A DNA stretch of 64,000 nt from Mycoplasma crocodyli MP145 (GTDB lineage: Bacteria > Bacillota_I > Bacilli_A > Mycoplasmatales > Metamycoplasmataceae), in NCBI RefSeq assembly GCF_000025845.1, contig NC_014014.1, positions 524,832 to 588,831 of the forward strand. Reading direction: 5' to 3'. The translations under genes were made by a program, and so were the position numbers. This document shows, one piece after another, positions 15,188 to 52,028 of this stretch. The notes beneath the pieces were generated by a model. That model saw nothing but the letters and a program-made list of their open reading frames with translations. It was not told the DNA's origin and ran no database searches. Position 1 is the first letter of the stretch, and each line of letters opens with the position of its first letter.

Positions 15188-15234
15188 TTTTTGTCTTTCT
15201 TTTAATTATTGTTAAATAATTATACTATTTAAGT

Positions 15235-15342
15235 TTAGTATTTATTTGTTTTTGATTCTTTTGGTGATGATAGTTTTATAATTAATAAAATCATTATCAA
15301 AAGAAAACTAAGAACTCAGAGAATACAAAAGAAGGTAATCAT
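15235..15342 (-). CDS. 35-residue single-span membrane peptide, copy A
   Basis: ATG preceded by AAAGGA. Sequence starts M-I-T-F-F-C-I-L-W (one TGA Trp) and forms a single hydrophobic helix followed by a polar Lys/Ser tail. Perfectly conserved in the copy at 19092-19199. It lies between the membrane-protein gene and the lipoprotein gene on the same strand. It could be a small coupling or lysis-type peptide, or leader DNA without a product. Confidence 0.45.
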
Positions 15343-15413
15343 TATTGAATTCCTTTCAAGTTAATTATTAAATTCATTTTTTATCCTTTCAGTTGATTAT
15401 AATAAATGATGAT

Positions 15414-19044: not shown

Positions 19045-19091
19045 TTTTTGTCTTTCTTTTAATTATTGTTAAATAATTATACTATTTAAGT

Positions 19092-19199
19092 TTAGTATTT
19101 ATTTGTTTTTGATTCTTTTGGTGATGATAGTTTTATAATTAATAAAATCATTATCAAAAGAAAACTAAGAACTCAGAGAATACAAAAGAAGGTAATCAT
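19092..19199 (-). CDS. 35-residue single-span membrane peptide, copy B
   Basis: Same sequence and ribosome-binding site as 15235-15342. Conservation between copies is expected from recent duplication, so it adds little proof of coding. Confidence 0.45.
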
Positions 19200-19270
19200 T
19201 ATTGAATTCCTTTCAAGTTAATTATTAAATTCATTTTTTATCCTTTCAGTTGATTATAATAAATGATGAT

Positions 19271-20179
19271 TTATTTTTTTCTTCTTTTAAGTTTTCTATA
19301 AATTGATAATAGAAGTAAGAAGATTGGTAAAACAATAAAGATACCAACACTTACTAAATAAGCTTTTAGAAATGCTTTATTTAAGTTTTGTTTTTGTATT
19401 GTTATTGCTTCTGCAATATCTATTGTTTTAGTTCCTAAAAAGTATTGAAAATCATTAATTCTTTTTTTATCAATTAAGATGATAATTACATATAAAAATG
19501 CAATGATAAGAAGTGAAATTACATTGATTATTGAAAATATTTTAATATCTCCAAAGGCTTTTTCAAGTAGTAGTTCCATATTGAATTTGATAGTTATTAA
19601 TTCAGATTCTGTATTAACTTTTACATATTTAAATGCAAAGATTAACAGAGCAAAATAACCATAAAAAGTAAGTATAAAAATAAAAATTCAAGTTGTTTTA
19701 ATTCCTTTGAGAATTAACTTTTTATACATATCATAAAACTTAAAGTTTGCTGTTGCATCATTTATTGAATAAGCATTTCTTAACTTTTTTATAATCGTTT
19801 TTCATGAGTTAAATTCTATTGCATTTTTTATTGAGAAGTAAATAGATGTAATGGCTAAAATACTAAATAAAATATAATATCCAATATAATTAATTTTTTC
19901 TTTTTCTATTGTGGTTAAGCCAAATTGAGCAGAATTAATTATGTTTAAATGAGTTAAAAGCAATGCTGTTGTAGCCAACGCTATTAAAACTAAAAAGGTA
20001 AATCAAATGATTGAATTTATCTTTTTTAACCTTCTCTCTTTCCTTATTATTCTATATACCTTTGGGTTAATTTCTTCATTTGTGTCAAAATCCTTTTTGT
20101 TGTTAGAAAGGTTTTTTAAAGAAATTACATTAGTTATAACTTGTGTTGGTTCTGGATTATTTAAAGGTGTAAATCTCAT
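19271..20179 (-). CDS. ICE multi-spanning membrane protein, copy B
   Basis: 302 residues, about four membrane spans, basic cytosolic N-terminal segment and a K-R-R-K-K end. Its ATG lies 19 bases inside the preceding small membrane-protein gene, which supports translational coupling. Unknown function within the conserved left part of MICEs. Two spans flank a central soluble segment (about residues 115-165). Confidence 0.8.
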
Positions 20180-20645: not shown

Positions 20646-23600
20646 CTATTTAAGTTTTTTGGCTTTAATGTATGTGTTTTTATATTTAATAATTCCAAAT
20701 ACTATTGCAGGTAATACAAAAACAAATAAAGCAACTATTCAAATAAGATGTAATGGTTGTTTTTGTATTAAACTAAATTTTGTTGGAGTAATTCCACCTG
20801 GGTTATTTGAAACATTAATAGTTTTATAGTTTATTAATTTTTTAGATAAAGCATCAATTCTAATGATTACTTTATTATCTTTGTTAGGTTCCTTAACGAG
20901 GTTATATAAAAGAATTTTGTTATCAGTTCAATTGTTAGGTGAAACTCTTTTTAATTCTTTAAATTTTGAGCCACTTATTGAATATGTTATTTGATAATCA
21001 ATTCCATTAATTCAAAAAGATTGGTTCATTTGTGTGTTAATATAGTCAATTATTTCATTATTTAATTCACTAAAATATTTATTTTGATATTTTGGCTCAT
21101 CTTTTAAATATTTATGATTAAGAATTAGGTCATCTATCTTAAGATTTGTTAAATCAAAAGAAAATTTGTTAACAAAGTCATTATAATCTTTATCATCTTC
21201 TGAAATATTTAGTTGAATGGTAAATGAAGCAAAATTAGATAATCAACTTTCAATTGGAAGTATTTTTGCATTAATTGGCTGATTAACATTTTGTAATACT
21301 AGCGTTATCAATTTATCAATCTCATTTAATGATATTTTTAGAATTTCTTCTTTTGATTTTGTAATAACAAACTGACTTATTCAATAATTTTTATTGTATA
21401 TAAGTTTAGGTTCAATATTATATTTATCAATCTCATTATTTACAAGATTTATTAATTCTTTAGCCATTTTATGCTTAAAATTTTCATCTTTTAAGTTAGG
21501 TTTACTCAATTTAATATTAAAGTTCTTTATTTTAGACAAGTCAAAAATTTTATTTTTTACAAAATTTAGAACTCTAATTTCAGGATTTTGTACTTCTTGG
21601 TATTTATTAGGTTCTTTTGGTTTAATGTTAAAAATTAAAGGTTCTGGTGGAGTATCTGTTTTATAGTTAAATGTAGGGCTTAATATTAGTTTTTTAAGTT
21701 CCTCTTTTAACTCTTTCTCTGTTAACACTTTTAAATCACTTGAATCGTCATTCGGTATTGTTATATTAATTTCATCATTTGATATATCTGATGCCAATAA
21801 CTTTGCAAGCTCATTTTTAAATAAATTAAGAATTTCTAATTCATCACTTTTATATGTTTGTAAATTTATCTCTCTTCTATCAGTGATGAAAAATATATCC
21901 TTAGCCAAGGCACTAAATGTTAGTTTTAAATCAGTGTTAGTATCTTTCTTTAGTTCATAAATTGATGATTTTAAGGAATTAACTTTTCACTTGATTTCAA
22001 TATGACCTGAATCAATGAGTTTTGTTTTAGGATTTAGTTTTGAACTAATATTCGAATCAAATTCTATAATAGTTTCAAGGTTATCATTAGGCAAATTATT
22101 AATCAACTCTCTTAATGTTTCTTTAGCATTATTTAATATTTCTTGTTGTTTGTTGGTATCAGTTATTTTGGTTCATTCTTCTTTTACTTTTGGAGATTTT
22201 ATATTAAGTTTATTTCAACTATCTAAAATAAATGCAATTTGGCTTTTATTAAGTAAATCATTTTGTTTATACTTTTCTAGTTTATTTGGTAGAGCAATAA
22301 ATACATCTAGTATTTGAAGTAAGGCATTTCAACCTGTTGATGTAGGATTATTAGTATCAAGTTCTAAAATATTTAATAATTCTTGCTCTCTAATAATTGG
22401 CTTGTGTTTAGCCAAGATATCATTAACAAGTCTTTTATAGTTTTTTTTGAAGTTTTGATAATTCATTGATTTTGCTCTATTGTTAAGTTCTATATTTATT
22501 TCTTGTGTTGGTGGAACAATAATAATTTTATCTGTTGAAAGAAGTTGCTTATTATCTGTTATATCACTTAATTTTACTAGAACAGTTTGGTGAAGGAATG
22601 CTTCAGGAATTTCTATACTTTCAATCCTTGGAAAAAAATCAAATTTTATAGCAATAGTTTTACTATTGTTTCTTGTTTCGAGGTTTGTGTTTGCTAAAAC
22701 CTTTGTATGATAATTTGATATCTTATTTAAATCTTCATTCATTAATTTAAGTTCATATAATAAGTCTTGGTCATCAGGAGACTTAAGAAGCAATTCATTG
22801 TGTTTAGTTATCTTGGTTTCAAGTTCTATTTGAGGTAAAGAAGTGTAATAATCATTAATGTTCTCCTTTAAGTGATTTTCAAAATCTTTAAAGTTATTAT
22901 ACCTTGATGCTATTCTAATCAGTTTCTCTTCCCTTACAATTGGTGTAGTAATATTTGAATTAGAAGAATTTTCAGATACATATAGTTTTCAATATTTAAC
23001 TAATATATCATATTCTAAAGAATAAGATTTTTCAGGACTAAAAGAATGAACTTTATATAAATATTCCAAAAGGTTTTTACCTTGAGGGCTTAACCAAAAG
23101 TTTGTTATATCAGGGTGAGTATCTAACTTTGGATATATTTGAACTTTTCTATTTGTTGCTAACAAGTGTGTATTGTATCTATATTCTTCACTTAGTTTTC
23201 ACTTATTAAATTCATTGTTATTGTTTGAATTAGGTAAATCATTGAAAGCTTTAAATTTGTTTCAATAATTAGTGTTGTAATCTTTAGCCATTTCATTTAA
23301 CTTTGTTGTAAAAGTATCAGTTTGTTTAAGATCATCACCAATTAATATAATTTTGAACTTATTTGAAAAATCATTAGGAAGCTTATATGAGTATAATCAC
23401 AAACCAGATGTTGAAAAGTACGATGGATTTTTAGGGTTTAAACTAATATTGGCTCCTGTTTCAGCACCAAATTCTTGTTTTAACCAATATTTACCACCAC
23501 CAGTGTATAAAGTTCTGGTTCAACCAGGTTCACTACTTAAACAGTAAAATCTTTTTAATTCAAGATGGTCATTATTTGGAATTGTTAACAAGACGGCTTT

Positions 23601-26000
23601 AGGTATAACTATGGCTTCTGCAAGAAAACCAAATACTTGTTTATTCTTATCTTCATTAAATATTTTGGGGTCTTGTAAAAAATAAGTGCTTTCAATTTTT
23701 TTGTGTTGTTGATTTGACTTTTTGTTTGAATAATTATAAATAGTTCCTGGTAAATCACTTCATTCATTTGTTGCATTAACTCAAACAATTTCTGTTGTGG
23801 TTCCAGTAGTAGGGTTTATGTTAGGGTTATACTTTGGGTTCTTTATTTCATTGCCTTCTTCATCTTTCAAAGGTTTGTTATCTTTATCTGTTAAAAAAGG
23901 AGAAATTAGAAGTTTTTGTTCTATGTTATTTTCCGGGTCTCAAGCATATCATTTTAAATCTAGTAATGTTGATGAACTATCTTTTATTATGATATTTCTT
24001 GTATATTTACTTTCTATTTTATCTGTTAATAGACCATTTATTCCATTTTTTTCATATCTAATTACTTCTATTTTATAAACATTATCACCAAGTGAACCAT
24101 CATCATTCTTTATGAAAGAAAAATCTTCAAGAGGAATATTTCATTGATGATTAATTAAATCATGTTCCTTATCATTGATTTTAATCTTTATGTTATCTAA
24201 ATCAGTTCCTATAAGGCTAACTTTAACTTGTGAATAAAATTGATATGTATCTTCATCTGGTTTTTCTTCAATATGGTCACCATTATCTTCTTTAACTTCA
24301 AATTCTTGGGTTGTCTTATTTCACTTTTTATACTTTGAACCAGTTGTTTTCAACATTTGTTTTAAGTTTCTTTTCTTAAATCTTTCAGTTGGTATTCAAT
24401 TTACTTTGACATTTGAAAATAATACTTTTGATGTTTTTTGTTTCCTATAAACATCATAGTATTCTAAAATAATGTCAATCTGGTTAGGTATATTAGAATT
24501 ATTTTGAGATTTGGATTGCTGTACTTTAATTTTGGAATTAGTTTCAACATTTTTCATATATTCAAACCCAATTGTTGTTTCAACCATATAATTTCTAAAT
24601 GAAATAATTTTTTCATTTATGTTTTTGGTTATATTTTGTTCCAAATAGTTTCTGAGATAATAATTAATTATTTGCTGATTACTTAATAATTTGTTTTTTT
24701 CATCTGCAAGTTTGTTTAATTTACTTAGATATTCAGAACTATCTGATGTATTCTTAATTATTGTATCTAAATCATTATTTAATATGCTATGTGATTCAGT
24801 GGGTGAATCTGTAATATCTGATGCTCCAACATCAGTAGGTAAATCAATTGTGTTTGATTTATAGTTTAAAATTTTAGGTAGTTCAATAGTTTTTATTAAA
24901 TTAGATAATTCTTTATCTCTATTGTTTGGTTGTGGGTCATCAAAAATAACTTTAAAGTTTTTTAAAAAAATGTGCTTTTCATTTGGTGTTGATTTGTCAT
25001 ATAACAAAATGTTAATTGTGTTTTCATCTACTGTTTCATAATCAAATTTCAGTGGATTATTATCACTATTGAATGATTTTATGTAGTCATTTAACTTCAT
25101 TTTGTTAGTGGTCTTATCAGAATATGAACTGTTGATAGTTGTACCATAGCAGTTATAAAATATTTGTTTTTTTGATTCTGCTTTCTTTTTTCAAGTATTT
25201 ATATGTGTATTTCAATGGTTAAAGTTATTTGGTGTTATGGTTTTGGTTGTTTCTTCAACATAATCAATTGTTCATTTATATTTATTTAAATAATCATATT
25301 TGTTGGGTGATGATGATTTTCAAGTAGAGTCTTTTCATCTTATGACTCACGCTGGGTCAGTGGATAGTATCAATTTAGCACTTATTACTTTTTTATATGG
25401 ACCTATAAATGGTGCATTTGTAGGAAAGTTAGCGCTATATAAAGTTAATGGTCAATAATCTTGTCCTAAACTAAAGCTTTCACTCAATGGTTTTGAACTT
25501 ATTTGGTATTGGTTTATAAAATGAAATTTCATATCTCTTGGGTCTGAATCAAAGTGGTATACATACTCTAAAACAGAATCCATATTTCTATATTCATCAA
25601 ATGTATATGCAGGACAAACTGGTATATTAGCTATTACATTACCAGAAGATGATTTAATTTTAAATCATAAGGATCTGTTGTCTTTTTCATATGTAAAATA
25701 AGTGTATTTATCAGATGATAAATATTGATTTGTCTTTTTTCAGGTTGTGAAGGATTTATCAATTTGATAATTGTAGTGGGTTATAGGAATAGATACCGTG
25801 TTATAAAACATTTCATCTATTGAACCTTCAAGAGTATAAGTTCCAGGTTCTTTATCTTTTCTTGTTGTTTGGCTTCATTGATAAGGAATGGCTTCAAAAT
25901 CATTGTTAGACAATGATGATGAAACTCCAAATGGAATGGTTAATAAAGGTAATGAAACCGATGTTAAAACTAAGGTTGGTTTAATTATTTTCTTTTTCAT
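20646..26000 (-). CDS. Giant ICE exported protein (Mbov_0399-type), 1784 residues
   Basis: One continuous frame when TGA is Trp (more than twenty TGA codons). N-terminal signal-like helix after M-K-K-K-I-I-K-P without a lipobox Cys, a long extracellular part rich in Asn, Tyr and Trp, and one C-terminal membrane helix before K-N-T-Y-I-K-A-K-K. This gives a single-span protein with a roughly 1700-residue ectodomain. It starts within the end of the 92-aa gene (20-base overlap) and is followed closely by two small membrane proteins. Position and size match the large protein next to the conjugation ATPase in MICEs. It may act in mating-pair contact; that is inference. No enzymatic motif seen. Confidence 0.82.
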
Positions 26001-26259
26001 TAATTTCCTTATTATCCTTTACACCAGCACTTTTCATTTCAGCTTGAAATTTAATTATTATCAACTTAATACTTTCTATTACCATTTCATCAAGTGAATC
26101 AGTAATAACTACATTTGATAAAGCATAAGAAATTTGGTTTACTTTAAATCCTAATTTTTTCAATGTTTTACTTAATTGTTTTAATTGAGGATTTAGTTCT
26201 TCTTTTATTTTTATAAATTCATTCGATATCTCTTTATTTGTTAATTGTTTTTTAGTCAT
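25981..26259 (-). CDS. 92-aa ICE protein (Mbov_0398-type)
   Basis: Helical, charged, without membrane segment or signal. GGAGA site before the ATG. Overlaps the ATPase end by 8 bases and the giant gene start by 20 bases, so all three are translated as one unit. Conserved at this place in MICEs. Function unknown; a cytosolic partner of the ATPase is plausible. Confidence 0.75.
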   Translation of the reverse strand: MTKKQLTNKEISNEFIKIKEELNPQLKQLSKTLKKLGFKVNQISYALSNVVITDSLDEMVIESIKLIIIKFQAEMKSAGVKDNKEINEKENN

Positions 26260-28930
26260 TTAATGTCTCCTTATCTTTAAATATTATTTTTCTTTCAAAG
26301 TCATTGTAGTTCATCTTACATCTGATTTTATAACCAGTTGCAGATGAAAAAAGTAATTGACCTTTATGAGCTCTTAATAAATATTCTTGTTCTGGTGCAG
26401 TTATAAATTCATTATCATCTTCAACTTTATTTGAAGGATTATAAAGCCTATTAATATGCCTTATGTCATCTCCGGTTTGTTTAAAGATGAAGTTATATTG
26501 AATATTTTTAAGGATTGCATTTGTTTTGTTTATTAAGTCTTGACTTAATGCAAAGTCAGCTGGATTTTGAGTGGTTAATGTTATTGAACCATTGTATTTT
26601 CTAATAGTTTTTGTGGTTTGGAATAGAAAGTCCAAAGTTGCCATATTATTCTTATCTACAAAGTAATGTGCTTCATCAACTATCAACATTGTTTTAAGTT
26701 TAGAAGTATAAAAGTTGTAATTTATCTTTGTTTGGATATAGTTTAGTAATTGATAAAAAGCCAAGTTAAGTGCTGTTGTTGATTTATTATCAGTTAATAC
26801 TTTTGTATCTATAATAATAAAATCTTTATTAAGGTCAATGTTTGTGTAATTGTTATATGTTTTAGCATATATACCATTATTTAAGAAATTTACAGTTAAA
26901 TAGTTCTTTAATCTTATTCTCTCCGGTTCATAAATAGGAGCTTCAGATTTATTGAATTTCATGTCTATAATGGTTTCTATTAATTCTGTTATTCTTGGGT
27001 ATTCATTATTTTCTAATTTTGATATATCCTTATTTAGATTATAAAAGTTATATTTTTTAGAACCATACAGACTTTTCAATGCAGTTATTATTAAGTATTG
27101 ACTGTCTTGGTTTAATTCTGGATTTAGTATTTTAAATCATTCAATAATTTTGTTTATCTGATTTGATAATAAAACTTCATTTGTTAATGTAGTTTCATTT
27201 GTATTATCATCTCTTATAGCCATATTTATTTGTAATGGATTAAGTGCTGTTTTACCGGTTCCTAAATCTATCCAAGAAGCATTGGTGAGTTCAGTTAAAT
27301 CTCCATACTCTCTTTGTGGATCGATAACAATTATTGAAGCTTTATCATTATAGTAGGAATTAAGCATCAATTTTTTCATTGCTGTTGTTTTACCTGAACC
27401 TGAAAGTCCGAAGAAAACACAGTTTGAATTTATGTGGTTATTATTTCTTTTTCAAATGTTCAAGAGTATAGGGTTTGCATTTCTCATGGCTCATATAAAG
27501 TTATTTTTGTCATCGTATTCTTCATTAATAAAAGGTCAGCCATATGCTAGATTTCTTGATACCATTTCAGTTTGGTTTTTTGAGTGAAAACTTGGTGTAA
27601 AAGTAATCATATTAAGTCCATCAAATTGCTTAAATACCAAATGATTTAAATTACTTTTTAGAGTTGCAATGTTTCTTTTGTTTTGTTTTTCCATTTCCTT
27701 TAAGTTCTGTGGTGTAGCACCATAAGAAATAAAATAGAATGATGTATTAAACAATTTTTGACCTTGTGAAAGAGTTAAATCTGAAGTTTCTTCAATGGCT
27801 TCTAATTCTAATTGTGCTTTTCTTGTTCTGTATGATGACTTATTATCTAAAACCATATTTGTTTCAGCATTTAAAGCTGACTTATCTATTAATTTTGCAT
27901 AGTTTTCACTTGGTATTTGATGAATATTTCATATAACAGTTGATTCTGTATTAAATAAATCTTGTATTCAATAATAAGGAATGTCTAGAGCATATTCATC
28001 TATTGTTTGTATTGAAAAATAATGGTTGTTATATTTAATGTGTGTGTTATTAATTGTGAGATTATTTGGCGCTAAATATTCATGTGGATTTTTAATTAAA
28101 TCTTTGTTTTCAAATTTATTTTGATCTGGTACTGCATCAAAAGGACTATAAATGGTTTTGTGAAAATATAATAACTCTAATGAATTTAATTCACAAGGGT
28201 TAAGGTTTAAACTGTTTAAGTTATGTAATAATTCACCTTCATAATCATTTAATTGTTGCACTGAACTTGCATAAATTATTACATAATAGCAATCTCTAAA
28301 TTCCTTTTCAGATAAAGCAGTAAAGTCTTTTTGAGAGGCAAATTGATATTCTTTATAATCTTTAGACATTCCAGGTTTCTTAATATTTTTTGAAATATCT
28401 TCTAATATATGATTATAGTCAGTTGGCTCTGTTCTTTTAATGAATGTAATAAAAAATGGTGTTTGGTCTAGAATTTGTAGAAAATGATTAATAAAATTTT
28501 CTTTTTCATTTTCGGGTCTATTAACCACATCATAACCTGTAAATTTATATACTTTGTATAACTGTGATGATGATAAATAAACAATATTATTTTTTATTTC
28601 TTTTATTCTAATGAGTGATTTTGTGTTTGCTACTTTTGATGAACTTGTATATTTATTGTTTGATAATATGAATTTAATAAGTCTAACAAGTACCAGCCAT
28701 AATCTTGCACTATGCTTTTTAACATTAATAAATAATGGTAAGAAAAGAATTGTAATTGAGATAAATATTAATGTTGAATATGTTGTATAGTTTTGATTAT
28801 CTTTTGATATTATTGTAAAACCAATTAATGCACTTATTAGTAAAGTCATTAGGAATACAACTAAATCTCATAAATTAAAGTTTTTATAAATTGTAGTTTT
28901 TTGTTTTTTTAAATTTTTTGGTTGTAGCAT
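26252..28930 (-). CDS. traE: Conjugal transfer ATPase, VirB4/TraE family (Mbov_0397-type)
   Basis: 892 residues. Powers assembly of the type IV secretion channel. The N-terminus has two membrane helices (about 24-75). Walker A is G-L-S-G-S-G-K-T-T (about 508-516) and Walker B is M-L-I-V-D-E-A-H-Y-F (748-757), followed by the T-T-Q-N-P sensor segment typical of VirB4. Seven or more TGA Trp codons. GGAGAATAA site before the ATG, 18 bases after the preceding gene. Most conserved MICE gene in the window and the best marker that the element was conjugative. Confidence 0.93.
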
Positions 28931-37100: not shown

Positions 37101-37472
37101 ATGAAAACATCAGACAAATTAATAATGACTTTTTTAACTATTGCAACCTTTGGTTTAATATGAATTAAATGAAATAAAGATAAAAAACATTCAAAAAATA
37201 CAATTTATCAAGTAAATAAAATACCTTGTGATGCAAACAAAATAATTGAGTATGTAGGTAATGGAAATATTACTGGTTTAAGCAAAACTTCAACAAGATT
37301 AATTATCGGAATTAAGGACCCTAATGAAATCAAACAAGAAGAATTAAAAAATTTAAAAGGTGTTAGTGGATTATTTATTTCATCAAAAACTATTTCATTA
37401 ATTTTTGGCGAATACACAAGCGCTATCCTAGAAGAACTTAAAAAAATCAGAGGTTAGAATGAAAACAATAGA
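37101..37472 (+). CDS. Membrane-anchored PTS EIIB-like protein lacking the active cysteine
   Basis: 123 residues. One membrane helix (about 7-22) precedes an EIIB fold: N-I-T-G-L-S-K-T-S-T-R-L corresponds to N-I-x4-H-C-A-T-R-L of glucose-type EIIB, but the phosphorylated Cys is Thr63 here. It therefore cannot carry phosphate in the usual way and may be a sensor or scaffold (inference). Three or four TGA Trp codons. A run of eight A near 37440 sets the C-terminal frame, so the protein ends at TAG 37470-37472, inside the helicase start (14-base overlap). A one-base change there would end it earlier. Confidence 0.75.
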
Positions 37473-40400
37473 TGAAAGATATAAAGCAATTTTAGATAAT
37501 TTATTGGAGGTTACAAGTAATGATCCTTCAATTTTTACTACAATAAATAATAGGCATTTTTTTGATGTTTATAAGTTATTTAATCCAACACATTTTGAAA
37601 CAATTTACAAAAACAAAGTTTTTGAAATCCCTATAATTGAAACTTCTTTACTAAAACTTGTTGGTCTTGTAGAAAAGGCGGAAACAAAAGAAGAATTAGA
37701 AAATTTATTGAAAGAAAATGAATATATTATAAGTGATTATAACGCTAGAATGCTTAATAATAATTTTGCAGAAACAAAGACTAAAATAAGAGAGTCTATT
37801 AATGCAAGTTTTCAAAAATCAACTATTAAATGAAAACTTCTTTTAAGCAAAGCAAATGAAATTAACGATGAGATTAATATATGACCACTTCATCTTTCAT
37901 TTATGTATGTATCCTTAGTTTTGGATGATAACAAGGTAATTTATGCCCCTTTATTTTTTAAAGAAGTTTTCATAAAATTTAGAAACGGAATACCTAATTT
38001 AATAAGTAATGGTGAGATTCACCTAAATGAAAAATTAATTTTTATTTTAAATAATCAAGGTTTTAACTTTTCTATAGATTTTGATATATCAAACTATAGC
38101 ATAGATGAATTAGTTAAAAAATTAAGTGTAGAATGGAATACATATTATCCAGAAATTCTTAACAATATTGGTAGTGTTTTTGATAAAAAAACTAATGAAA
38201 CCATTTTAAATCAATCTCTTCAATTTCATACCGGAATTGTTCTTGGAACATTTTTACCAGCCGGAGGATATAGCAGAAATAGAATGAAAGAAATAATTGA
38301 TAACGATGAAATCGATGACATTATTAGCGTAGATTTTAATAAAAACACATATAAAAATAAAGTTAAAAATTCAATTTTTAGTAAGGATTTAGCTCTATTT
38401 AAAATTACTCCAACCAACTACTCACAAGATAAAGCAATAATATCATCATTATGTCAAAATACCATAATATGAGGTCCGCCGGGAACTGGAAAATCTCAAA
38501 CAATTGTTAATATATTAACAAATGTTTTAGTATATGGAAAAAGTGCAATAGTGGCATCACAAAAAAAAGCTGCTTTAGAAGTTATTAGAAATAGATTAGG
38601 ATCTTTAAGTTGTTTTGGACTATTTATTTTAACATCAAAAGACATGAAAAAAAGATCATTTTTTGCTCCAATTAAACAGTATTTAGACTTTTTAGAAAAC
38701 TATGATAATGAAGTAAAAATTGATTATTTAAAAATAATAACAGACAAGGAAAAATTATGAGTTGATACACTTGTTGAAATTCAAAACAATGAAAAAGCAA
38801 ATGAAATTATTCAAGCATATTTTTACTTATACAATAACATTGATAAATTGGAAGATGAACAAATTAAATTTATTTTATCTCTACCAAAGAATATTATTTA
38901 TCCAGAAACAAACATTGAAAAAAGAATGGATAAAGTACTCATTAAAATCAATAAAGTATTTCCTCTTCCATTTCTAAAACGTTATAAATCAATTAAATTA
39001 CTAGGTGTAGAAATCAATAAAAACTTAAATGATTTCAAAGCAAATCTTGCAGAATTAGTTCGTGCTTTTAGAAATTTAGATACATATGATATTGAATGAT
39101 TAAATAAAATATTTGATCTCATGCCTAACTATGATTTAGCATCAATATCTAATGAAGAAATGATAAAAAATATAGCAGCATCAAGAATTATCAATAAGAT
39201 AAAAGTTTTTGATAAAGCAATGACAAGAAGATATAGAGAATTTGCTTCATCAGTAAGAATAGGAAATTTAGAACCTTATAAATTCGTTAAAGAATATGCA
39301 GATATGATTAAAGTTCTGTTCCCAATTATAATTGCAACACCAGACACCGATTTAAGTAAATGAAATAAGAATGAATTTGATTTTGGAATAATGGATGAAT
39401 CATCACAAATATTTATTGAAAAAGGACTTCCAATTTTATATCTTTCAAACATAAAAATTCTTGCCGGTGATGATAAACAAATGAAACCTTCAAATTGATT
39501 TGGTACAAGAAGTACAGACGATTCTATTTTTGGAAACGTTGAATCTTTACTCGATTATGCAACGTCTCTTGGTGTATATAATATACTATTAGATAAAAAC
39601 TATAGATCAAATTACGCATCATTAATGACTTTTTCAAGTAAATATTTTTATAATTCAAGCCTTGATGTTATTGATATTGCAACCGCTATAAAAGACAGTG
39701 CAATTGAAGTGATACAAGTTGATGGTGAATGATTGGATAATAAAAATATTAAAGAAGCTAAAAAAGCTCTTGAATTATGTAATGGATATATTGATAAATA
39801 CAAAAAAATTATTTTACTTGCCTTTAATGCAAAACAACGTGAGTATTTAACGGATTTAATTTATGAAGCATATCCTAAGTTAGAAGCTGCCATTAACGAA
39901 AGAAGATTAATGCTAAGAAATATTGAAAATATTCAGGGAGATGAAGCTGATTTAGTTATTTGTACAATTGCATATGATAAAAACTCTAAAATCAACTCTA
40001 CATATGTAGGTCGCTCTGGAGGAATGAACGCACTAAACGTTGCAATTTCAAGAGCAAAAGATAAGATGATAGTTATTAAAACAATTAAATCAGAGGATGT
40101 AAGTAATTTAACAAATAGTGAAGATACAAAGATTTTTAAGGAATGATTAAAGTTCCTTGAACTGGATGAAAACCAAAGAAAAACTATTTCAGTAGTTAAT
40201 GCTAATTATAATGAAGAAGACGAATTAAAAATAATTAAAAATCACTCAGAACTTGAACAAAATTTGCTTGATTATCTTGATAATATTATAAAATTAAATC
40301 CTTCTATAAAATACATAAAAGACTATACCATAGGAACATTGAACATTGATATAGCAACATTTATTGATGATAAAATTTATAAATGTTTTATATTTGATGA

Positions 40401-40791
40401 ATTTGAGTATGAAAATGACTATGAAGCTTTTGTAATTTTAAAAGATAAATTAAACTTCTTAAGATCAAAAAAATACGACATGATAATTCTTAATAGTATT
40501 AATTGATTAAGAGATAAAAATAAAATAGATGAACATTACTCACAAGAAAGTATTGATATGTTTAAAGAACAATACAATCAAATGATTGAAAATGAAAAAA
40601 TAGATCTTTTAAATTATAAACATACTAAAGAAGTAGAACTCAAAGATGAAAATCAAGATGCTAACGAAGAATTTGATGATGATATAAATAATAATCAAAT
40701 AGTAACTAAGGAACAATTCATAAAAGAACTTACTAAAGAAATCAATATTATAGAGGCTCTTGAAGGAGATATTCAAAATGAAACTGAATAA
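37459..40791 (+). CDS. Large SF1 helicase (Upf1/Dna2-like, AAA_11/AAA_12)
   Basis: 1110 residues. Walker A G-P-P-G-T-G-K-S (339-346), Walker B D-E-S-S-Q (646-650), Q-G-D-E-A-D-L (826-832) and motif VI N-V-A-I-S-R-A-K (860-867) give the full Upf1/Dna2-type set. The first about 330 residues contain no known domain. A helical insertion separates motifs Ia and II. The C-terminus beyond 950 looks nuclease-like in position but I see no catalytic set. At least six TGA Trp codons. Overlaps the EIIB-like gene and the ArsR gene. Such helicases occur in repair and in defence systems; which applies is open. Confidence 0.9.
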
Positions 40792-41137
40792 TTTTTTCAA
40801 ACTTTGTTCTTCTGATGTTAAGTTAAAAATTATGATTCATTTGTATTCATGTGATAAAAATGAATGTGATGTAAATGAATTTGTAAGATTATTTAATGAA
40901 AAACAAGCAAATATTTCAAAACACTTTATGGATCTAAGAAAGAACAAAGTTGTAACAACTAAAAAAACAGCACAAAATGTATTTTATAAAATGTCAAATA
41001 CATTTAAAAATCAATTTAATGATTACTTACATTTAATGTCTCATGATCATTGCTATAAAGATTTTTCTTGTTCTTGTTCATCAATAACAAACAATGAAGA
41101 TCAACATTGTGTACATGATTGTTGTGTTGAAAAATAG
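40778..41137 (+). CDS. ArsR-type HTH regulator with Cys/His-rich C-terminus
   Basis: 119 residues. A winged-helix segment (about 13-75, with N-E-K-Q-A-N-I-S-K-H-F-M-D-L-R as the recognition part) and a tail holding H89, H91, C92, C98, C100, H110, C111, H113, C115 and C116. ArsR proteins leave DNA when they bind metals or lose redox state; this cluster suggests metal or thiol sensing. Start at the ATG with AAGGAGAT upstream, overlapping the helicase by 14 bases. Probably autoregulates the operon; target sites were not identified. Confidence 0.85.
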   Translation: MKLNNFFKLCSSDVKLKIMIHLYSCDKNECDVNEFVRLFNEKQANISKHFMDLRKNKVVTTKKTAQNVFYKMSNTFKNQFNDYLHLMSHDHCYKDFSCSCSSITNNEDQHCVHDCCVEK

Positions 41138-41424: not shown

Positions 41425-44400
41425 ATGAAAATTAGTAAAAAAACTAAAACAATTTTTATAACACAAACAATATCATTAAGTGCGGTTTTGGCTGCTAGTG
41501 CAGTATCAATAAGTGCAGAAAATAATAATGAATCTGGAAATACAAACAAACCCTATAATGAACAACTTATTGAAATAATTGATAAATGATACAAAGAAGA
41601 TTTAAGTGAATATGATTACGAAGAAGCAAAAAATTATAAAATAAGATTAAAAAATATTGAATATAATGAATTGCAAAATGAAATAACAAAAGAAAAATAT
41701 GATGAATTACATGCTAAACTACTCAAATTAAAGTCGGATCTTGAAAAAATACGTTATAAGACAACTGTTTTAGAAAAAATAAAAAATCTTATTGAAAGTG
41801 CAGAAAAAGATTATGCAATAAAATCTATAGATTCTAAAATAACTTTTTATAAACAAGAATTAACTAAAATAAAAGAAGGTGTGGAAAAGTTCACTGGCGT
41901 TTATAATATGGCAGAAGATTCAAAAACTCAGATCTTAATAACCAAAGCAAAAAACGATGTAGAGAACTTTCTTGTTGAATTAACAGAGTATAGAAACAAT
42001 GTTAAATCTTCTCTAGTTGGAAAAAATCATTTATCAGAAAATAGTGTTAAAAGCTTCGAAAATAGTGTTGATACAATATTTGAAAGATTTAACTATAATC
42101 CCTTAATAACAAAATTGTTATATGAAGAATATGTAAAAACCATTGAAACTTTAAAAGAAAATATTGATACTTATAAGGAAAAGATGGCAGAAATATTTAA
42201 AAGTGCAATAGAAAACAATAATAACTATCCTGATAAAAATACTGAATTAACCTTATGAACTGATATGGAACTTAAGAAAATACTTGCCGAATTTAATAAT
42301 GAAATATCAGAACAGTTTACAAAAGAGAAGATTGATATTTATGATAAAAAAATAGATGATGTGTTTTTCAAAGGGAAAGTAAAGTTAATACAAGAACTAT
42401 GTGCAGAAGTTGAGTCTAAAGATTTCTTAAAAATATATACTCCAGAAAGCCAAACTAAGTTTCTAGAAGCTATTAACGATATAAAGAACAATCCAGCAAA
42501 AATGCCTACAAAACGACTTTATTTGAGTGCTAGAAGTAATATTCGTCAAGCCATTAATAATAATAGACATTTTCTTGAAGGATGTAAATTAAAAATTACT
42601 AGAAAAATTAAATATAATGAGGAGAAAAAAAATCCTCATTATGTTAAAGAAAAAGCACAAAAAGCACAAAAAATGTTAATCGAATTAAAAACAAGAGTTG
42701 ATTCGCTAAAGGAAAATGAATATTTTGAAGATTCATATATTGAAGATTTAAAAATAATTAAAGAAATAGAAGAATTATTTATCTATTATAGAGATCAAGC
42801 AATTTTAGATTTAGAAAACGCTAAAACATTTTTAAGTGGAGTTACTAGAGAATTTACAAAAGAGTATTTTTTATCCGTTATAAATAAAAGAATATCATCA
42901 TTAAAAACTAACGATATTGGTGAGGACAGTTATCAAAATGAAGTATGATATCTAAAAGAACAAATAGTAAAGAACATAAAAAATGAAATTGAAAATCAGA
43001 CATTTCTAAAAAACTTTATTAAAACAATTAATTTTGATAACTATTCAAAGGAAGAAGAAGAAAAGTTTAACAAACTTGTAAAAGATTACAACAACCTATA
43101 CGATACAACAACTATTCCTGGACCTGAATCCTTTCAAAATAGTATAAAGGAATTTTTAAGTGAGACAATAAGTAACAGAGATAGAATTATAGAATACCTT
43201 AACAAAAAAGTTCTTGCAATATACACTAGAATTAAATCTTATTCAAAAATAGTTCAAAACAGATTTGAAACAGCAAGACAAGTACTTGTTAGAAAAATTT
43301 TTATACCTAAAAATATTACAAGACAAGAATATAATAATTTAGAAATTGAAGTTAATAATTTAGAAAAAATATTAACCAACTCATCCGAACCTAATGATGT
43401 TGAGTTATATCTAGAATTAATCAATCTCGATATATATACAGAATTTAGTACAAATGTTTTTGTATCAAAAGTATTAGAAATCAGAAAAAAACTTTTACTT
43501 GAAGAAAATAAAGTTCCTGATAAGTTAGCAGAAATCAAAAATGAAGTTAAAGAACTTGAAAAAGAACTTGTGTACAATAAAAAAGAACTACTTGATGAAT
43601 TAAATAAATTTGAAACATTCATAAATGATACTTCAGATTATGTTAGACCCGATTCTATTACCCTAGCAAGATTAGAAGCTGACAAACTTAAAGATTTAAT
43701 AAACGAAAACGAAAATGCCTTTTATACAAAGAATGTTCAAAGAACATGATTAATAAAAATTGGTGACCTTAAAAAAATACTTATATATAATAAAGCGTTT
43801 TTAAAAGAAGAACTTAAGAAATTATTGAATGAATATAATAAACTAAAACCTACATTAGATAGTACGATTAATGAAACATTTAAGATTAAATATGACTATA
43901 TCGATAACAATATAAATAAAGAGACAAATATAGGTAGCATTAAGTTTGATGAATACATAAAGGAAATTGATAAACTTTATGAATATTTCATTGATTATAA
44001 AACAAAATTACTAAATCAAATTAAAACTACTTTGGATGCTAATTATGATATTTATACAGAAGAATCGGTTAATGACTTAAATAAATACCTTGTAAGTTTA
44101 AACTCGAAAATCACAGTATTAGATTTTGTTTCAAAGAAAACTTGTGAAACAAATATTATTGAAATCAATGAAAAAGTAAAAAATTCATTAATAAAAAATA
44201 AAGATGCTATCAATAATTATTTAACATCGATAAATACAACCATTGAAAACGAAAAAGATTATTACACACCTGAATCGTTGAGTTTATTTATAAAAGAAAC
44301 CGCTAATATATCAACCAATATCAATAAAAATGATGAAGTTTCAAGAGTTAAATACAAAACATTTAAAAATGAGATAGATAAATCATTAGAGCTACTCAAA

Positions 44401-46134
44401 AAATACAAAAATATTCTTCTAGAAACAATAGAATCTATGAAAGTTCAAGATGAAAGTAAATATACTAAAGAATCTATAGACAAGATGATTATAGAACTAG
44501 AGAAAATCAATACACAAGTTTTCTCAATGGATAAAATTAGTAGTAAAGAATATCAAGATTTTGATAGCAAAATTAGAGATTTATTAAAAATATTAGAATG
44601 AAAAATCAATTCAAAAGACGATTTATTACTATATATTAATAGTATTAACTTAGATATTTATACGGTTTCTAGTACAAATGAATTCAATGAGAAAATAGTT
44701 ATTATTAAAAACAAATTGAATCTTGATGAAAATAACAATATTGAAAAATTAAAATCTATCAAAACAGAAGTTAGTCTATTAAAAGAAAAATTAGTACTTA
44801 ATCAAAAAGAACTATTGGATAATCTAAATGTAAAAAGAAATGAAATAACTCTCGATGAGCAATACTATACATCAGAATCATTTAATAACGTAGAAAACGA
44901 ATTCATTAAATTGCAAGATGATATCAATAAAAAAGGTAAATATTACTTTACAAAAGATAAACAACAACCACTTCTCGAAAAAATAAATAATATTAGCAAA
45001 AAATTAATCTCTAATAAAAACTTTTTGGTTCAAGAACTTGAAAAATTAAATGAGGAATTTAAAAAACAAGAAGCTAAATTAGATGCAAATATAAAAAACT
45101 TATATAAGACCGGTTATAATGTTCTAGAACCAAAGATCAACCACGAAGAGAAATTTAACAGAATACAAACTAATGAATACAAACTAAAAATTGATGAATT
45201 GTATGATTTATTTATGAATTTTAAGGAACAATTATTATTAGAAATTAAAAAAGCATTAGAAAGTGATTATGATATTTTCTCAGAAGAATCATTTAATGAA
45301 TTAAATAAATACTTAAACACTTACAATGAAATAATCAAATCTAAGGATCACATTTCTAAAAAATCTTATGACGATTCAATTAAGGATATTAACAAAAGTG
45401 TTCAAAATCTTTTAATAAGAAACAAGGAAAATATCATCAAACACTTTAATGAAACAACATTATTAGTAGAAAATGAAAAAGATTTTTATACAAACGATTC
45501 ACTTCAAACATTCAAGAATGAAGTTAAGATAATTTCAGAAAATATTGAAAATAAAGATGAATTAACAAGAAGTGAATTCAAAACATATAAACAAAGAATT
45601 GATAACAGTTTAAACTTGCTAAAAAGATTTAAAGATATTCTACTTAAAACAATTTCATCAATGAGAACTCAAGATGAAAGTAAATTTACTAAAACATCTA
45701 TAGAAAAGATGATTATGCAATTAAATAAAATCAATAATCAAGTAAATGACCACGAAAAAATAAACAATTCTCAATACAATGATTATGATAAAAAATTGAG
45801 AGATTTATCAAAACTATTATTAACATATAAAGATCAATTATTAGATGATATTGAAAAACTAAAATCTGATAAGAAAGAGAATGATTATAAGAAAAAAGCT
45901 TTTCAAAAATTTACTAAACATATTAACAAAAAAGAAAGTCAAATAAGAAAATTGGGAGACTTAACACCTTCATCTTATATTGATGAAAAAACTTCTTTAG
46001 ATAAAATTGCTAATATGCTTAACGATGGTGCTGGTACACCTAAAAATGCTTTACTTGCATTTTCGATGTTAAGTACAATTGGTGCTATAATCACATTAAT
46101 ATTAATGATTATCAAAAAGAAAACAAAACATTAA
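41425..46134 (+). CDS. Giant surface protein with FIVAR-like repeats and C-terminal membrane anchor
   Basis: 1569 residues. Signal-like helix (about 8-31, no lipobox Cys), a roughly 1500-residue helical ectodomain, then a membrane helix near the end (A-L-L-A-F-S-M-L-S-T-I-G-A-I) and a K-K-K-T-K-H tail. At least eight copies of a module of about 70 residues carry Y-x-x-E-S-(F/L/I/V) followed by a helix (for example bases 42430, 44041, 44260, 44452, 44860, 45265, 45478, 45676), like FIVAR domains of adhesins. Three modules in a row are duplicated about 1.2 kb apart (43.8-44.6 and 45.0-45.8 kb). Likely an extracellular adhesin or fibril; ligand unknown. Confidence 0.85.
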
Positions 46135-46533: not shown

Positions 46534-46950
46534 TTAGTTAAATTTATCGATATTTTTATAATATTTAACTAATATTAATCATTCAGACAATGTGGTAATT
46601 ATGCTTAAAAATAAAATTATTGAATTTATAATATAAGAGTTAAATATTTCTTTATCATAAATTACAAAATAAATTACATTAATTAAGCTAACTGAAATTA
46701 ACAGTATCGAAAATACAATAAGACTTACTAATGAAAATATTTTATATCAGAATAATCTATATTTCCCATCTAGTGAGCAATAAATATTTATCGCTAAATA
46801 AATCATTATTACACTAATTATGATTGCTATTATCGAACCAACTAGATTTTGCAATATTAAATTAACAATGAAAAATATTACAAATATAGAAGATGAAATT
46901 ACATTGAACATTATAGGCCATAAATCTTTTTTACTGTTTTTAGTCTTCAT
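46534..46950 (-). CDS. 138-aa membrane protein, last gene of the nucleotidyltransferase operon
   Basis: About four hydrophobic helices after a basic start (M-K-T-K-N-S-K-K), one TGA Trp in the last helix region. Overlaps the preceding gene by 11 bases, so made with it. Unknown. It may form a membrane complex with the upstream gene product, which also has two membrane spans. Confidence 0.7.
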
Positions 46951-48274
46951 ATGATTCCTTTAAGATTTGTAGAATAATGATATTTCTAATATCAACTTTA
47001 ACTTCTTTTTCTTTTGCTTCTATTTTAAATAGAACAAAAAGATTTGATAAATTATTTTTTTTCATTTCTGTTAATTCATTTTTATAATAATTAAAATAAT
47101 TATCATAATTAATTTTTACATTTAAATTTTTGATATCCGAGTAATCTAAAACAATTTTTTTGTCAACTAATGATAAGACGCTTTTATCTCACGAACCCGA
47201 TATTCTATTTATAGATTTATTAAATTGTAAAAATTTTTGTGATGAAGTTAACTTTTTAGTTATTAATTCTAGTCACAAGAATACTTCATGCATATTTTTT
47301 TGTTTTCATTGATAATCTTTTAAAAAATTGTTTAGTTTTAAAATAGTATCTTCATCATATAAATTGAATAATTTGCTTTGATTAATTAACATTTCAAAGA
47401 ATGAATTAGATAAGATTAATAACTCAAAATTTTCATAAAATTTCTTGAAACTAAATACACGTTTTTTTGATAAAAGAAACGCAATATCAGCCAATGTATT
47501 ATTCATTTTTTTAATGATTAAATCATTGTTAAAGTCTTTATTTACCTGAAGAATTTTAAAGAATTGAGAATACTTCATAGCCAACATTCAATAGTAATTA
47601 GGAATATTAACATCATTATAATTACAATATGACTTTTTAGTGATTGTTTTAACATTTAACACTTCAATTGGATGATTAGTATACTTGCCTTTTCCTAAAT
47701 TTAAATTATTACTTTCAAAGGTAAAATTTTCAAATTTTAATTTTTCTGTATCTAGCCTTTTATTAGAATTACCTAAGAAATCAATATCATTAAACTCTCT
47801 ATAATAATCTTTATATTTATACGCAATAGAACAACTACCTTGTAAAACAAGATTATTTGAATTCATGAATTTAATAAACTTAACTAAGTCAGTTTTAAAT
47901 ACATTTTTATTGACTTTTAAATCGGTTATGTTTGAGTATTGAAACTTAATAAAGTAATAACATTTTAATCACTTTATTCCTTTAAAAATATTTTTTTGAT
48001 ATTGATATTGAACTCCTAGAATAGTTATATTAATAAGTATCAATCAAATTAATGGAATTACTATAATGGAAAAAATAATACAACTATTTAAAATGAATTT
48101 GATAGTTTTACTATATGACTCTTCGTTTTTATATGAATAAATAATCAATGCAACACAAAGCATTATGAAAAATACAACAAATAATGAAGATACAATTACT
48201 TCAAAATGTATTCTATTTCTCTTTATATTATTTAATTGTTTAAATTTGTTTTCTGTTTTATTGTTTAGTAGCAT
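46940..48274 (-). CDS. Membrane-anchored nucleotidyltransferase-like protein (AbiEii-type)
   Basis: 444 residues. Two membrane helices (about 27-50 and 62-82), then a cytosolic domain with V-L-Q-G-S-C-S-I-A-Y near residue 140 and R-E-F-N-D-I-D-F about 17 residues later: the G-S and D-x-D motifs of the nucleotidyltransferase superfamily. H-P-I-E-V-L could give the third acidic residue, and Y-W-M-L-A-M-K-Y-S-Q resembles the conserved Lys helix of AbiEii toxins. It would transfer a nucleotide to an unknown target. Start at ATG 48274, 10 bases inside the upstream gene. Seven or more TGA Trp codons. Family reading is inference from motifs. Confidence 0.72.
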
Positions 48275-49149
48275 ATGTTTGGTAAAGTTCCTCAATCATT
48301 TTTATTATCATATTCCATTTTTAATTTTGTTGCTTTGAGATATAACTCTGTAATGTAATTTCTAAATTTTCTAACATCCCATTTAATTGTAAATTTAGTT
48401 CATATGTTAATTCCAAAATCTAAATTACAAATATTATCATAAGACTTTTTTACAATATTATCAATTACATCAATATCATATTTACCTTTATGAAAAGCAC
48501 TACCAATATTTTCTAATGAATTTATAACTCCGTCAACAAATTTTAATACCGTATTATTTCCATAATTATTTATTGCTTTAATTATCTCACCAACACCAGC
48601 TATTATAGTAGCTGATTGATCTACAAAATCATTCCCTGTATTAATGCCAGACATAGCATCAGACAATCACTGACCACTCGTTAGAAAAGCCTCATCAAAA
48701 GCAACTTTAAATATTGATCTTCAAGCTTTAAATGAATATATATTGTTTCGTATTCTTCAATTATATGATTTTATCATACCATTTCATTCATCATCAGTAA
48801 TAAAATCTCCAAGCGACATTTGCTGACTATTGCTCATAAGAATAACTTGTCGATTATTAATTTCGCTTTCAATAACGTTTGTGTTAAATGTTTTTGTTTT
48901 CAATATTTTTTCATCAATCCATTTTAAAACCTGGTTGATATCTTCGTTTAACTTTTTATTTATTAATAAATATGAAGCTAAATCACTATGATTTTTTTTG
49001 TATTTATTAATAAATAAAAAGTCATCTTTAACCAAATTATTTTTTTGCAATAATTTTTTATATAAAACGTTGTTTTCAAAATTAAAAACAAAATTTATTT
49101 TTTCATCAATTTCTTGATTTTTTACTATGTTTTGATTATTTATCATCAT
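48265..49149 (-). CDS. 294-aa protein, first gene of the nucleotidyltransferase operon
   Basis: Soluble, helical first half (starts M-M-I-N-N-Q-N-I), a Gly/Ala-containing weakly hydrophobic segment near 160-195, charged second half. Several TGA Trp codons around residues 123-142. No family recognised. AGGAGA is only one base from the first ATG, so the second ATG (49146) may be used. An 18-bp perfect palindrome sits just upstream (49155-49172) where an operator would act. Confidence 0.7.
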
Positions 49150-49154
49150 TCTCC

Positions 49155-49172
49155 TATAGTATTAATACTATA
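49155..49172. promoter_or_regulatory. 18-bp palindrome, likely operator
   Basis: Perfect inverted repeat centred on AGTATTAATACT with no loop, directly before the AGGAGA site of the 294-aa gene. A dimeric repressor could bind here and control the three-gene operon. Role is inferred. Confidence 0.5.
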
Positions 49173-50393: not shown

Positions 50394-52028
50394 ATGATAA
50401 AAAATAATAAAATTGATAATGAAAACTATTGAAATTTTAGTCATTTATTCCCAAAAGATATATTAGAAAATATTTGAGATGTTGAATTTTTATCGTACGG
50501 GTATCACAATATTTCTTTTAAAGCAAAATATCAAAATTCTAAAGTAATTATTAGAGTTCCTTTTAAATCATTTAAACTTGAAAAGTTACTTGAAAATGAA
50601 GAAAAATATAATGTAACTTTTGTCGGTTCTGCTCAAGATGATTACTTAGTTAACCATAAAAATGAAGGAAATTTTTACAAACAAAGTTATGATCTTATAT
50701 ACTACAAAAACGGTGTATATATTAAAAAATTTATAGAAGGTAGCACACTTGAAACAATTGATTTTTCAAAACAAGAAAATGATTGAATAAAAGAAAAAGT
50801 TATTAAGAAACTTAAAGAATTTCACTCTAAAAAACTTGAAAATATTGATAATTTTGATTGATTTACTTACAGGAGTGATGATCCTAAATTTAAAGAACTT
50901 GTTGAAAAATATAAAGATGATGAATTAAATCTTATTCATGGAGATCTTGCTGCTAAAAATATTATTCTTGATAAAAATAATAATATTCACTTTATTGACT
51001 ATGAATGAGTAAGATATGGAAATAGAGCTTTTGATATAATTTCACTTAAAAATCTTTTGAAGCTCACAAACATACAACTATCAAAAGAATTCGGTATTGA
51101 AATGGAAGTACTCAAGGACTTTGAGTATCTCAAAAAAATCTTTGATAAAGATGCATATAAAAAGGTTTATGACAAATTAAATGAATATAATACAACTTCA
51201 TTAAGTAAATATAAGAGAGTTTATAAACTTGGACAATATCTTTTTAAAGTCTTGAGAGAAAGTGATAGATATACTTTTGATACAACTTTAATAGAAAGTT
51301 ATAACCTTACGCCAATTATTTATTATAGAGATAAAAACTATGAAATAAGCGAATTTATTTATAAGAAACAATTTGGTAGATATGTTGACATGACAACTCC
51401 GGTATGAAATGCTGTTTTAAAGTTAAGCCAAATAAGAGTTAAGTCTCTTGAAGGAGTTAAATTTGACGAATTGCCAGTTGTTATCTACATAAATAATTAT
51501 TATAAAGATAAACCAAAAAAAAGGTTAATTGCCTTTATCTTAAATCAAGTTAGATTGCACACAAACTTAACTCATTTAGTTCATTATGACATCAAATATG
51601 GTAATCATATTTATACAGAAAATAAAAAGGTTAAATTTGTTGATTTTACTTATGCAAGCATTGGAGATATTTCATACAATTATGCAAATATAGCAAGTAG
51701 TTTAAGAAATCATAGTTATGACCAAGCATCCATAAAAAAATTAACTGATGAAATGAAGGAAACTTTTACAAATATAAGTTATATGGCTTGTTTGGTTCTA
51801 TCAAGTTTATTCAACTATGTTAAAACAAAAACATTAGAACCTAAAAACAAAAAATTCACATCGATGTATTTTCAATTAATGATTTTTGGACTAGAACAAA
51901 TTAGAGATTTTCAAATGCAAAGTGCTCTTAAACTTAAAGAAGAAACGGGTGATGAACTTTATTCGCTTTATGTTAAACATCAGTGATCAAAGTTTAATTG
52001 AGATGACCTTAGAAAAAAGGCTATTTAA
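50394..52028 (+). CDS. Tandem two-domain APH/choline-kinase-like phosphotransferase
   Basis: 544 residues with two kinase-fold halves. First half: catalytic loop L-I-H182-G-D184-L-A-A-K-N and H-F-I-D-Y-E-W, as in choline/ethanolamine and aminoglycoside kinases. Second half: L-V-H397-Y-D399-I-K-Y-G-N404 with V-D-F-T-Y, where the usual D-x-E/D is weaker. It may phosphorylate choline, ethanolamine, a sugar or a related small molecule; the substrate cannot be read. Six or more TGA Trp codons. No clear Shine-Dalgarno before the ATG. Monocistronic, divergent from pfkA with only 78 bases between starts. Confidence 0.82.

What the first reader, a model, noticed from the sequence alone, without database searches (positions are those of the whole stretch)
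46534..49149. Undescribed three-gene membrane nucleotidyltransferase system
Seen: overlapping genes for a 294-aa soluble protein, a 444-aa protein with two membrane helices plus G-S and D-I-D nucleotidyltransferase motifs, and a 138-aa multi-span protein, behind a perfect palindrome. Known: AbiEii-type nucleotidyltransferases are toxins of toxin-antitoxin and abortive-infection systems. Inference: a membrane-tethered toxin or modifying enzyme, with the 294-aa gene as antitoxin, repressor or substrate. Membrane anchoring is unusual for this family.
Basis: partly seen in the sequence, partly recalled or inferred. Interest (0 to 1): 0.65.

Follow-up and report, generated by a model that had tools for sequence, protein, structure and literature searches.

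The report
Membrane nucleotidyltransferase and tyrosine-ended partner operon
A small mycoplasma operon pairs a membrane-anchored nucleotide-adding enzyme with a helical protein that almost always ends in the same amino acid (tyrosine), which suggests the enzyme switches that protein on or off by tagging its tail.

Summary
Read with the mycoplasma code (TGA=Trp), window 46534-49149 (minus strand) holds three overlapping genes: g1 (294 aa, helical, soluble), g2 (444 aa, two TM helices plus a nucleotidyltransferase) and g3 (138 aa, 4 TM). g2 is NCBIfam NF045994 'MAG4530 family', uncharacterised. Its model matches JHP933, MenT1 and ANT(2'')-Ia (Foldseek probability 1.0), with the GS...DxD...E motif. 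g1 and g3 match no family. The unit is kept: across 135 genomes of the family g1 occurs in 24, always beside g2. The palindrome is real but expected by chance and not conserved.

New here: across very divergent g1 proteins (mean column identity 22%) the only invariant residue is the C-terminal tyrosine. It persists where no gene overlap could impose it, in held-out loci, and in three internally deleted g1 genes. Where g1 is lost, the NTase active site is often lost too (9/17 versus 2/21 collapsed loci, p=0.005), although dead copies stay under purifying selection.

Best reading: g2 nucleotidylates g1's C-terminal tyrosine, as MntA does to HepT in type VII toxin-antitoxin pairs; g1 is probably the harmful, membrane-active partner. 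No biochemistry exists; the modification is inferred.

The parts
48265..49149 (-). g1: 294-aa all-helical soluble protein, proposed substrate/effector
   Evidence: Table 4 ORF; family alignment A3; AF2 helical, mean pLDDT 58.6, tail 286-294 below 50; no Pfam, NCBIfam, PADLOC or PHROG family
48268..48270 (-). TAC codon of the C-terminal tyrosine Y294 of g1, the only invariant column of the g1 family
48577..48627 (-). most hydrophobic stretch of g1 (FVDQSATIIAGVGEIIK, from aa 175); central position typical of full-length g1; absent from the internally deleted forms
48289..48294 (-). TGAGGA inside the end of g1 (Trp-Gly codons), likely ribosome-binding site of g2
   Evidence: sequence
46940..48274 (-). 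g2: 444-aa membrane nucleotidyltransferase, NCBIfam NF045994 MAG4530 family
   Evidence: E 7.9e-142; AF2 mean pLDDT 72.8; Foldseek hits JHP933, MenT1, ANT(2'')-Ia
48020..48217 (-). N-terminal two-TM region of g2 (aa 20-85); a separate gene in some relatives
   Evidence: hydropathy and AF2 helices; split in L073, L074, L076, L078, L085, L086
47375..47893 (-). nucleotidyltransferase core of g2 (aa 128-300)
47834..47839 (-). GS motif (G146-S147)
47780..47788 (-). D-I-D motif (D163, D165)
47663..47665 (-). E204, presumed third carboxylate
46534..46950 (-). g3: 138-aa four-TM protein overlapping the end of g2
49155..49172 (.). 18-nt perfect palindrome abutting the g1 ribosome-binding site; not above chance, not conserved

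Best explanation
A membrane-anchored regulatory operon of the toxin-antitoxin or controlled-effector type. g2 is a nucleotidyltransferase (shown by motif, fold model and family conservation) held at the inner face of the membrane by two helices (predicted). Its substrate is g1, a helical protein with a flexible C-terminal tail. g2 transfers a nucleotide (AMP or another NMP) to the hydroxyl of the C-terminal tyrosine of g1 (inferred). This switches off g1, which is probably a membrane-active, growth-inhibiting protein acting through its often glycine-rich hydrophobic middle (inferred). g3, a four-helix membrane protein, is the third partner, perhaps the scaffold or target of g1 in the membrane (weakest step). 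Overlapping frames couple translation of g1, g2 and g3.
For: NTase fold and motifs. g1 lies beside g2: all 24 of 135 genomes with g1 have g2, and the coordinates place them next to each other. C-terminal Tyr is the sole invariant column among 18 g1 proteins at 22% mean identity: last residue in 16, second-last in 2. Among other ORFs of 150 aa or more, 14 of 293 end in Tyr, and that count includes some g1-like proteins. It holds where g1 is followed by a membrane gene instead of the NTase (tails EFGGY, NFGGY, NGGY, LGGY, SSGY, FGVY) and where g2 starts in another register (L066), so the overlap does not impose it; both TAT and TAC are used. Loci not used in the alignment also end in Tyr: L108, L110, L135-L138. 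The g1 tail is predicted disordered. NTase core residues are intact in 19 of 21 collapsed loci with g1 but lost in 9 of 17 without (p=0.005); one case is recent (GS to GP in L144-L148, while their g1-bearing sisters L108 and L137 keep GS). Polarity: three g1 genes carry in-frame internal deletions of the hydrophobic middle while the NTase stays intact; dead NTase with full-length g1 occurs twice, once beside a live tandem copy (L066). Precedent: MntA uses GSx10DxD to add AMPs to Tyr104 of HepT (PMC7641770).
Against: No direct evidence of modification, of toxicity, or of which nucleotide. In L110 a dead NTase sits beside a full-length g1 ending in Tyr. Two g1 proteins end in YR and YH, so a free terminal Tyr is not strictly required. 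Some intact NTases have no detectable g1 (L140, L141, L149; L057b is a tandem copy). In close relatives the tail codons also carry the ribosome-binding site and start codon of g2. The g1 model is low-confidence and has no structural match. g3 similarity across clades is mostly undetectable by sequence. One close g1 pair (L108/L137) has dN/dS 1.08, so g1 may evolve under little constraint there.
Confidence: 0.45

Rival explanations
1. The NTase is the toxin, like AbiEii or MenT modifying tRNA or another cell component, and g1 is its antitoxin, whose C-terminal tyrosine tail plugs the active site as a pseudo-substrate.
For: Closest structural neighbours include the toxin MenT1. A tail entering the active site would also explain the invariant Tyr and the loss of active site when g1 is lost.
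Against: If the NTase were toxic, g1 should be kept while the NTase is live. Instead g1 is internally deleted or absent beside intact NTases (L051, L062, L070, L140, L141). g1 has no AbiEi or MenA match.
Confidence: 0.2
2. The Tyr tail is a docking or stability signal read by g3 or another membrane protein, and the NTase acts on something else such as a lipid head group, glycan or tRNA.
For: In split systems g1 is followed by a membrane gene, not the NTase, and keeps its tail. g3 is usually retained, including beside dead NTases (L053, L063, L139).
Against: Does not predict that the NTase active site decays when g1 is lost. g3 is missing next to several g1 genes that keep the Tyr (L072, L074, L081).
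Confidence: 0.2
3. A CBASS-like signalling unit: the NTase makes a nucleotide second messenger that opens a membrane pore formed by its own two-TM part and g3.
For: NTase plus two-TM architecture recalls SMODS/SLATT associations (recalled, not tested).
Against: Listed structural neighbours are AbiEii-like and aminoglycoside/lincosamide NTases, poly(A) polymerases and CCA enzymes; no cGAS/DncV-type enzyme appears in the top 50. No SMODS, SLATT or PADLOC match. Gives no role to the g1 tail.
Confidence: 0.08
4. An ordinary housekeeping membrane complex of unknown role, with no conflict or regulatory function.
For: Dead and g1-less copies remain under purifying selection (dN/dS 0.1-0.28), so some copies do a non-catalytic job.
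Against: Patchy: 47 of 135 genomes have g2 and 24 have g1; frameshifted, truncated and internally deleted copies are common.
Confidence: 0.07

Closest known systems
Type VII toxin-antitoxin HepT/MntA (HEPN/MNT)
   Same: Two-gene unit of a helical protein and a Pol-beta-type NTase with a GS...DxD motif; a conserved tyrosine on the helical partner is nucleotidylated there and proposed here.
   Different: g1 has no HEPN match and no HEPN RX4H motif was recognised; the tyrosine is C-terminal; the NTase is larger, membrane-anchored and closer to AbiEii/MenT than to the minimal MNT; an extra four-TM protein is present.
AbiE / MenAT (type IV toxin-antitoxin, AbiEii-like NTase toxins)
   Same: NTase fold; MenT1 is among the best structural matches.
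   Different: No AbiEi- or MenA-type antitoxin; not above the AbiEii Pfam cut-off; membrane anchor; loss pattern argues that the NTase is not the toxin.
NCBIfam NF045994, MAG4530 family protein
   Same: g2 is a full-length member (E 7.9e-142).
   Different: The family is only a name; neither the NTase identity, the partner g1, its C-terminal Tyr nor g3 was found described in the sources searched.
Aminoglycoside and lincosamide nucleotidyltransferases ANT(2'')-Ia, LnuA
   Same: Core NTase fold.
   Different: Soluble antibiotic-modifying enzymes; no partner operon.

Membership tests
MAG4530 family (NF045994) | score above the curated 50 bits over the full length | tested here: met
   473 bits, residues 1-439 of 444
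AbiE type IV toxin-antitoxin | toxin matches AbiEii (PF08843) | tested here: not met
   No match for P0002; 1 of 29 relatives at E 0.064; none in the own genome
AbiE type IV toxin-antitoxin | AbiEi-type antitoxin next to it | tested here: not met
   g1 family has no AbiEi match
AbiE type IV toxin-antitoxin | NTase fold with catalytic carboxylates | tested here: met
   AF2 and Foldseek; GS, DxD and E conserved
Type VII HepT/MntA | toxin is a HEPN protein with RX4HXY | tested here: not met
   no HEPN match; no RX4HXY seen in the alignment
Type VII HepT/MntA | antitoxin is a minimal NTase (PF01909) with GSX10DXD | tested here: not met
   GS-x15-DxD in a 444-aa membrane protein, no PF01909 match
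Type VII HepT/MntA | tyrosine of the partner is nucleotidylated by the NTase | not testable with these tools
   needs mass spectrometry; an invariant Tyr is present
CBASS / SMODS-SLATT | CD-NTase match and known effector | tested here: not met
   no PADLOC or Pfam match; no such enzyme among the top structural neighbours

The most novel reading that the evidence does not exclude
A new class of toxin-antitoxin or effector-control system in which a membrane-anchored AbiEii-type nucleotidyltransferase disarms a membrane-active helical protein by adding a nucleotide to its C-terminal tyrosine, with a four-TM third partner. Pseudoenzyme versions were later recruited to another job after losing their substrate gene.
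Probability: 0.3. Interest if true: 0.8.

Novelty: new variant of a known kind. Interest (0 to 1): 0.6.

Why it matters
If right, the way one toxin family is silenced (nucleotidylating a tyrosine, so far HEPN/MNT) would extend to an unrelated partner, a different NTase branch and the membrane, with the C-terminal residue as target. It gives an uncharacterised family of mycoplasmas, animal pathogens such as Mycoplasmopsis bovis among them, a concrete one-residue prediction (Y294 with D163/D165). The natural set of active, tandem, split and dead-enzyme copies is ready-made material for asking how a regulatory enzyme becomes a pseudoenzyme.

Tried and rejected
Palindrome as operator: real, but about 2 expected per 64 kb and not conserved. 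Tail conservation as a by-product of overlap with the g2 start: rejected because it holds in non-overlapping and split loci. The same motif in viral contigs: none. g1 against solved structures: only coiled-coil-type chance hits. The g1-like paralogues of L077/L081 against Pfam and PDB: nothing. Literature on MAG4530, or on NTases in mycoplasma toxin-antitoxin: nothing relevant found. The window's species was not identified.

Full report
Observation. The window is from a mollicute (934-kb contig; TGA codes for Trp). With table 4 the three genes are open at the stated coordinates on the minus strand, with 10-nt and 11-nt overlaps. A TGAGGA inside the end of g1 is a likely ribosome-binding site for g2. 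The palindrome at 49155-49172 exists, but a Markov model of the window expects about two perfect palindromes of that length and three are found; none occurs upstream of other g1 genes.

What g2 is. g2 is a full-length member of NCBIfam NF045994, 'MAG4530 family protein', which has no assigned function. Pfam, PADLOC and PHROGs give nothing. The alignment of 29 relatives keeps a GS, a DxD, a later E/D, a KxxQ and a D. A model from seven sequences has mean pLDDT 72.8, with the core around residues 128-300 mostly 70-93 and two long N-terminal helices. Its best matches in the PDB are nucleotidyltransferases: H. pylori JHP933, M. tuberculosis MenT1, ANT(2'')-Ia, TM1012, LnuA (probability about 0.93-1.00; best E 1.7e-3). 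The NTase fold is therefore well supported. AbiEii membership in the Pfam sense is not.

Conservation of the unit. A search of 135 genomes of the family finds g2 in 47 genomes of three genera and g1 in 24; every genome with g1 also has g2, and the coordinates lie next to each other. Two g1 genes found by profile outside the first set (L108, L110) both turned out to be followed by a g2 homologue. A small multi-TM gene overlaps or abuts the end of g2 in 22 of 31 loci examined; the three-gene order g1-g2-g3 is seen in L052, L054, L056, L057, L060, L064, L066 (twice), L083, L135 and L136. g3 sequences are alike only between near relatives. In some species the TM part and the NTase are separate genes flanked by further TM proteins (L073, L074, L076, L078, L085, L086). 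The own genome has a second copy (L051), with an internally shortened g1.

The tail of g1. In an alignment of 18 g1 proteins with mean column identity of 22% the only invariant column is a tyrosine at the C-terminus: last residue in 16, followed by one residue in two (...GYYR...AWYH). Typical tails are WGSSWY, WGTTCY, EFGGY, NGGY, LGGY, SSGY and, in the window, WGTLPNICY. Among 293 other ORFs of 150 aa or more in the same loci 14 end in Tyr, a count that includes several g1-like proteins. Three controls argue for protein-level selection. First, in split systems g1 is followed by a TM gene and still ends in Tyr. Second, in L066 the g2 frame starts in a different register and the tail is still GSWY or GTWY. 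Third, both TAT and TAC are used. Loci not used for the alignment agree: L108 (PSYY), L110 (RLKY), L135 (SSSWY), L136 (GGGCY), L137 (RTYY), L138 (FGGY). Two unaligned helical proteins beside NTases also end this way: L077 (FGPGY) and L081 (YDTRY). In the structure model the tail is disordered.

Link between tail and enzyme. I scored the NTase core (G146, S147, D163, D165, E204) in 38 loci after collapsing near-identical ones. It is intact in 19 of 21 loci with g1 and lost in 9 of 17 without (Fisher p=0.005; with Tyr-ended positional candidates counted, 23/25 versus 4/13, p=0.0002). Collapsed loci are not fully independent, so these p values are optimistic. The losses lie on several branches of the tree, including a recent one: L144-L148 have lost g1 and carry GP instead of GS, while their sisters L108 and L137 keep both g1 and GS. 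The dead copies are not decaying: dN/dS is 0.10-0.28, so they appear to have become pseudoenzymes with another role.

Polarity. In three loci g1 carries a large in-frame deletion that removes the middle and keeps both ends, the terminal Tyr and an intact NTase (L051, L062, L070). Full-length g1 has its most hydrophobic, often glycine-rich stretch mostly in the middle (0.40-0.71 of the length in all but one of the full-length proteins); it is lost in the deleted forms. A dead NTase with full-length g1 is seen only in L066b, beside a live tandem copy, and in L110. This order of loss is what one expects if g1 is the harmful part and the NTase its silencer. It rests on few events.

Mechanism. The nearest precedent is type VII toxin-antitoxin: MntA uses a GSx10DxD motif to put three AMPs on Tyr104 of HepT (PMC7641770). 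By analogy g2 would nucleotidylate g1 on its terminal Tyr. Shown here: fold, motif, pairing, tail conservation, co-loss. Inferred: the reaction, the nucleotide, the harmful nature of g1, the role of g3. A CBASS-like reading has no support from fold or family searches.

Novelty. No paper in the held library mentions MAG4530, and none found links mycoplasma NTases of this kind to toxin-antitoxin; most subscription journals are not held. The system fails defining features of AbiE and of HEPN/MNT and is filed as a new variant of a known kind.

Noticed in passing
window 12000-37000: Probable mycoplasma integrative conjugative element: HerA/VirB4-like ATPase at 26252-28930, a 1784-aa membrane protein at 20646-26000 and SSB-like and DprA-like genes (by eye).
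   Followed up: partly
window 13562-16322 and 17419-20179: Near-identical tandem duplication of a 541-aa lipoprotein gene plus a 302-aa membrane protein gene inside the conjugative element region.
   Followed up: no
window 41425-46134: 1569-aa repetitive coiled protein with signal-like N-terminus and C-terminal TM, no Pfam match, directly beside the cassette.
   Followed up: no
window 37459-40791: 1110-aa SF1-type helicase (AAA_11/AAA_12) followed by a small Cys/His-rich ORF at 40760-41137 with no Pfam match.
   Followed up: no
window 50394-52028: 544-aa protein with an APH-type kinase domain and a second kinase-like half.
   Followed up: no
L055, L059, L061, L084, L065, L068, L144-L148: Catalytically dead relatives of g2 without g1, kept under purifying selection; apparent pseudoenzymes of unknown role.
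   Followed up: partly
L108 1402-2397 versus L137 g1: Close g1 pair with dN/dS about 1.08 while the neighbouring g2 pair has 0.26; relaxed or diversifying selection on g1.
   Followed up: no
L077 3667-4566 and L081 2171-3121: Helical proteins next to the NTase with a central hydrophobic hairpin resembling alpha-pore-forming proteins by eye; no family match.
   Followed up: partly
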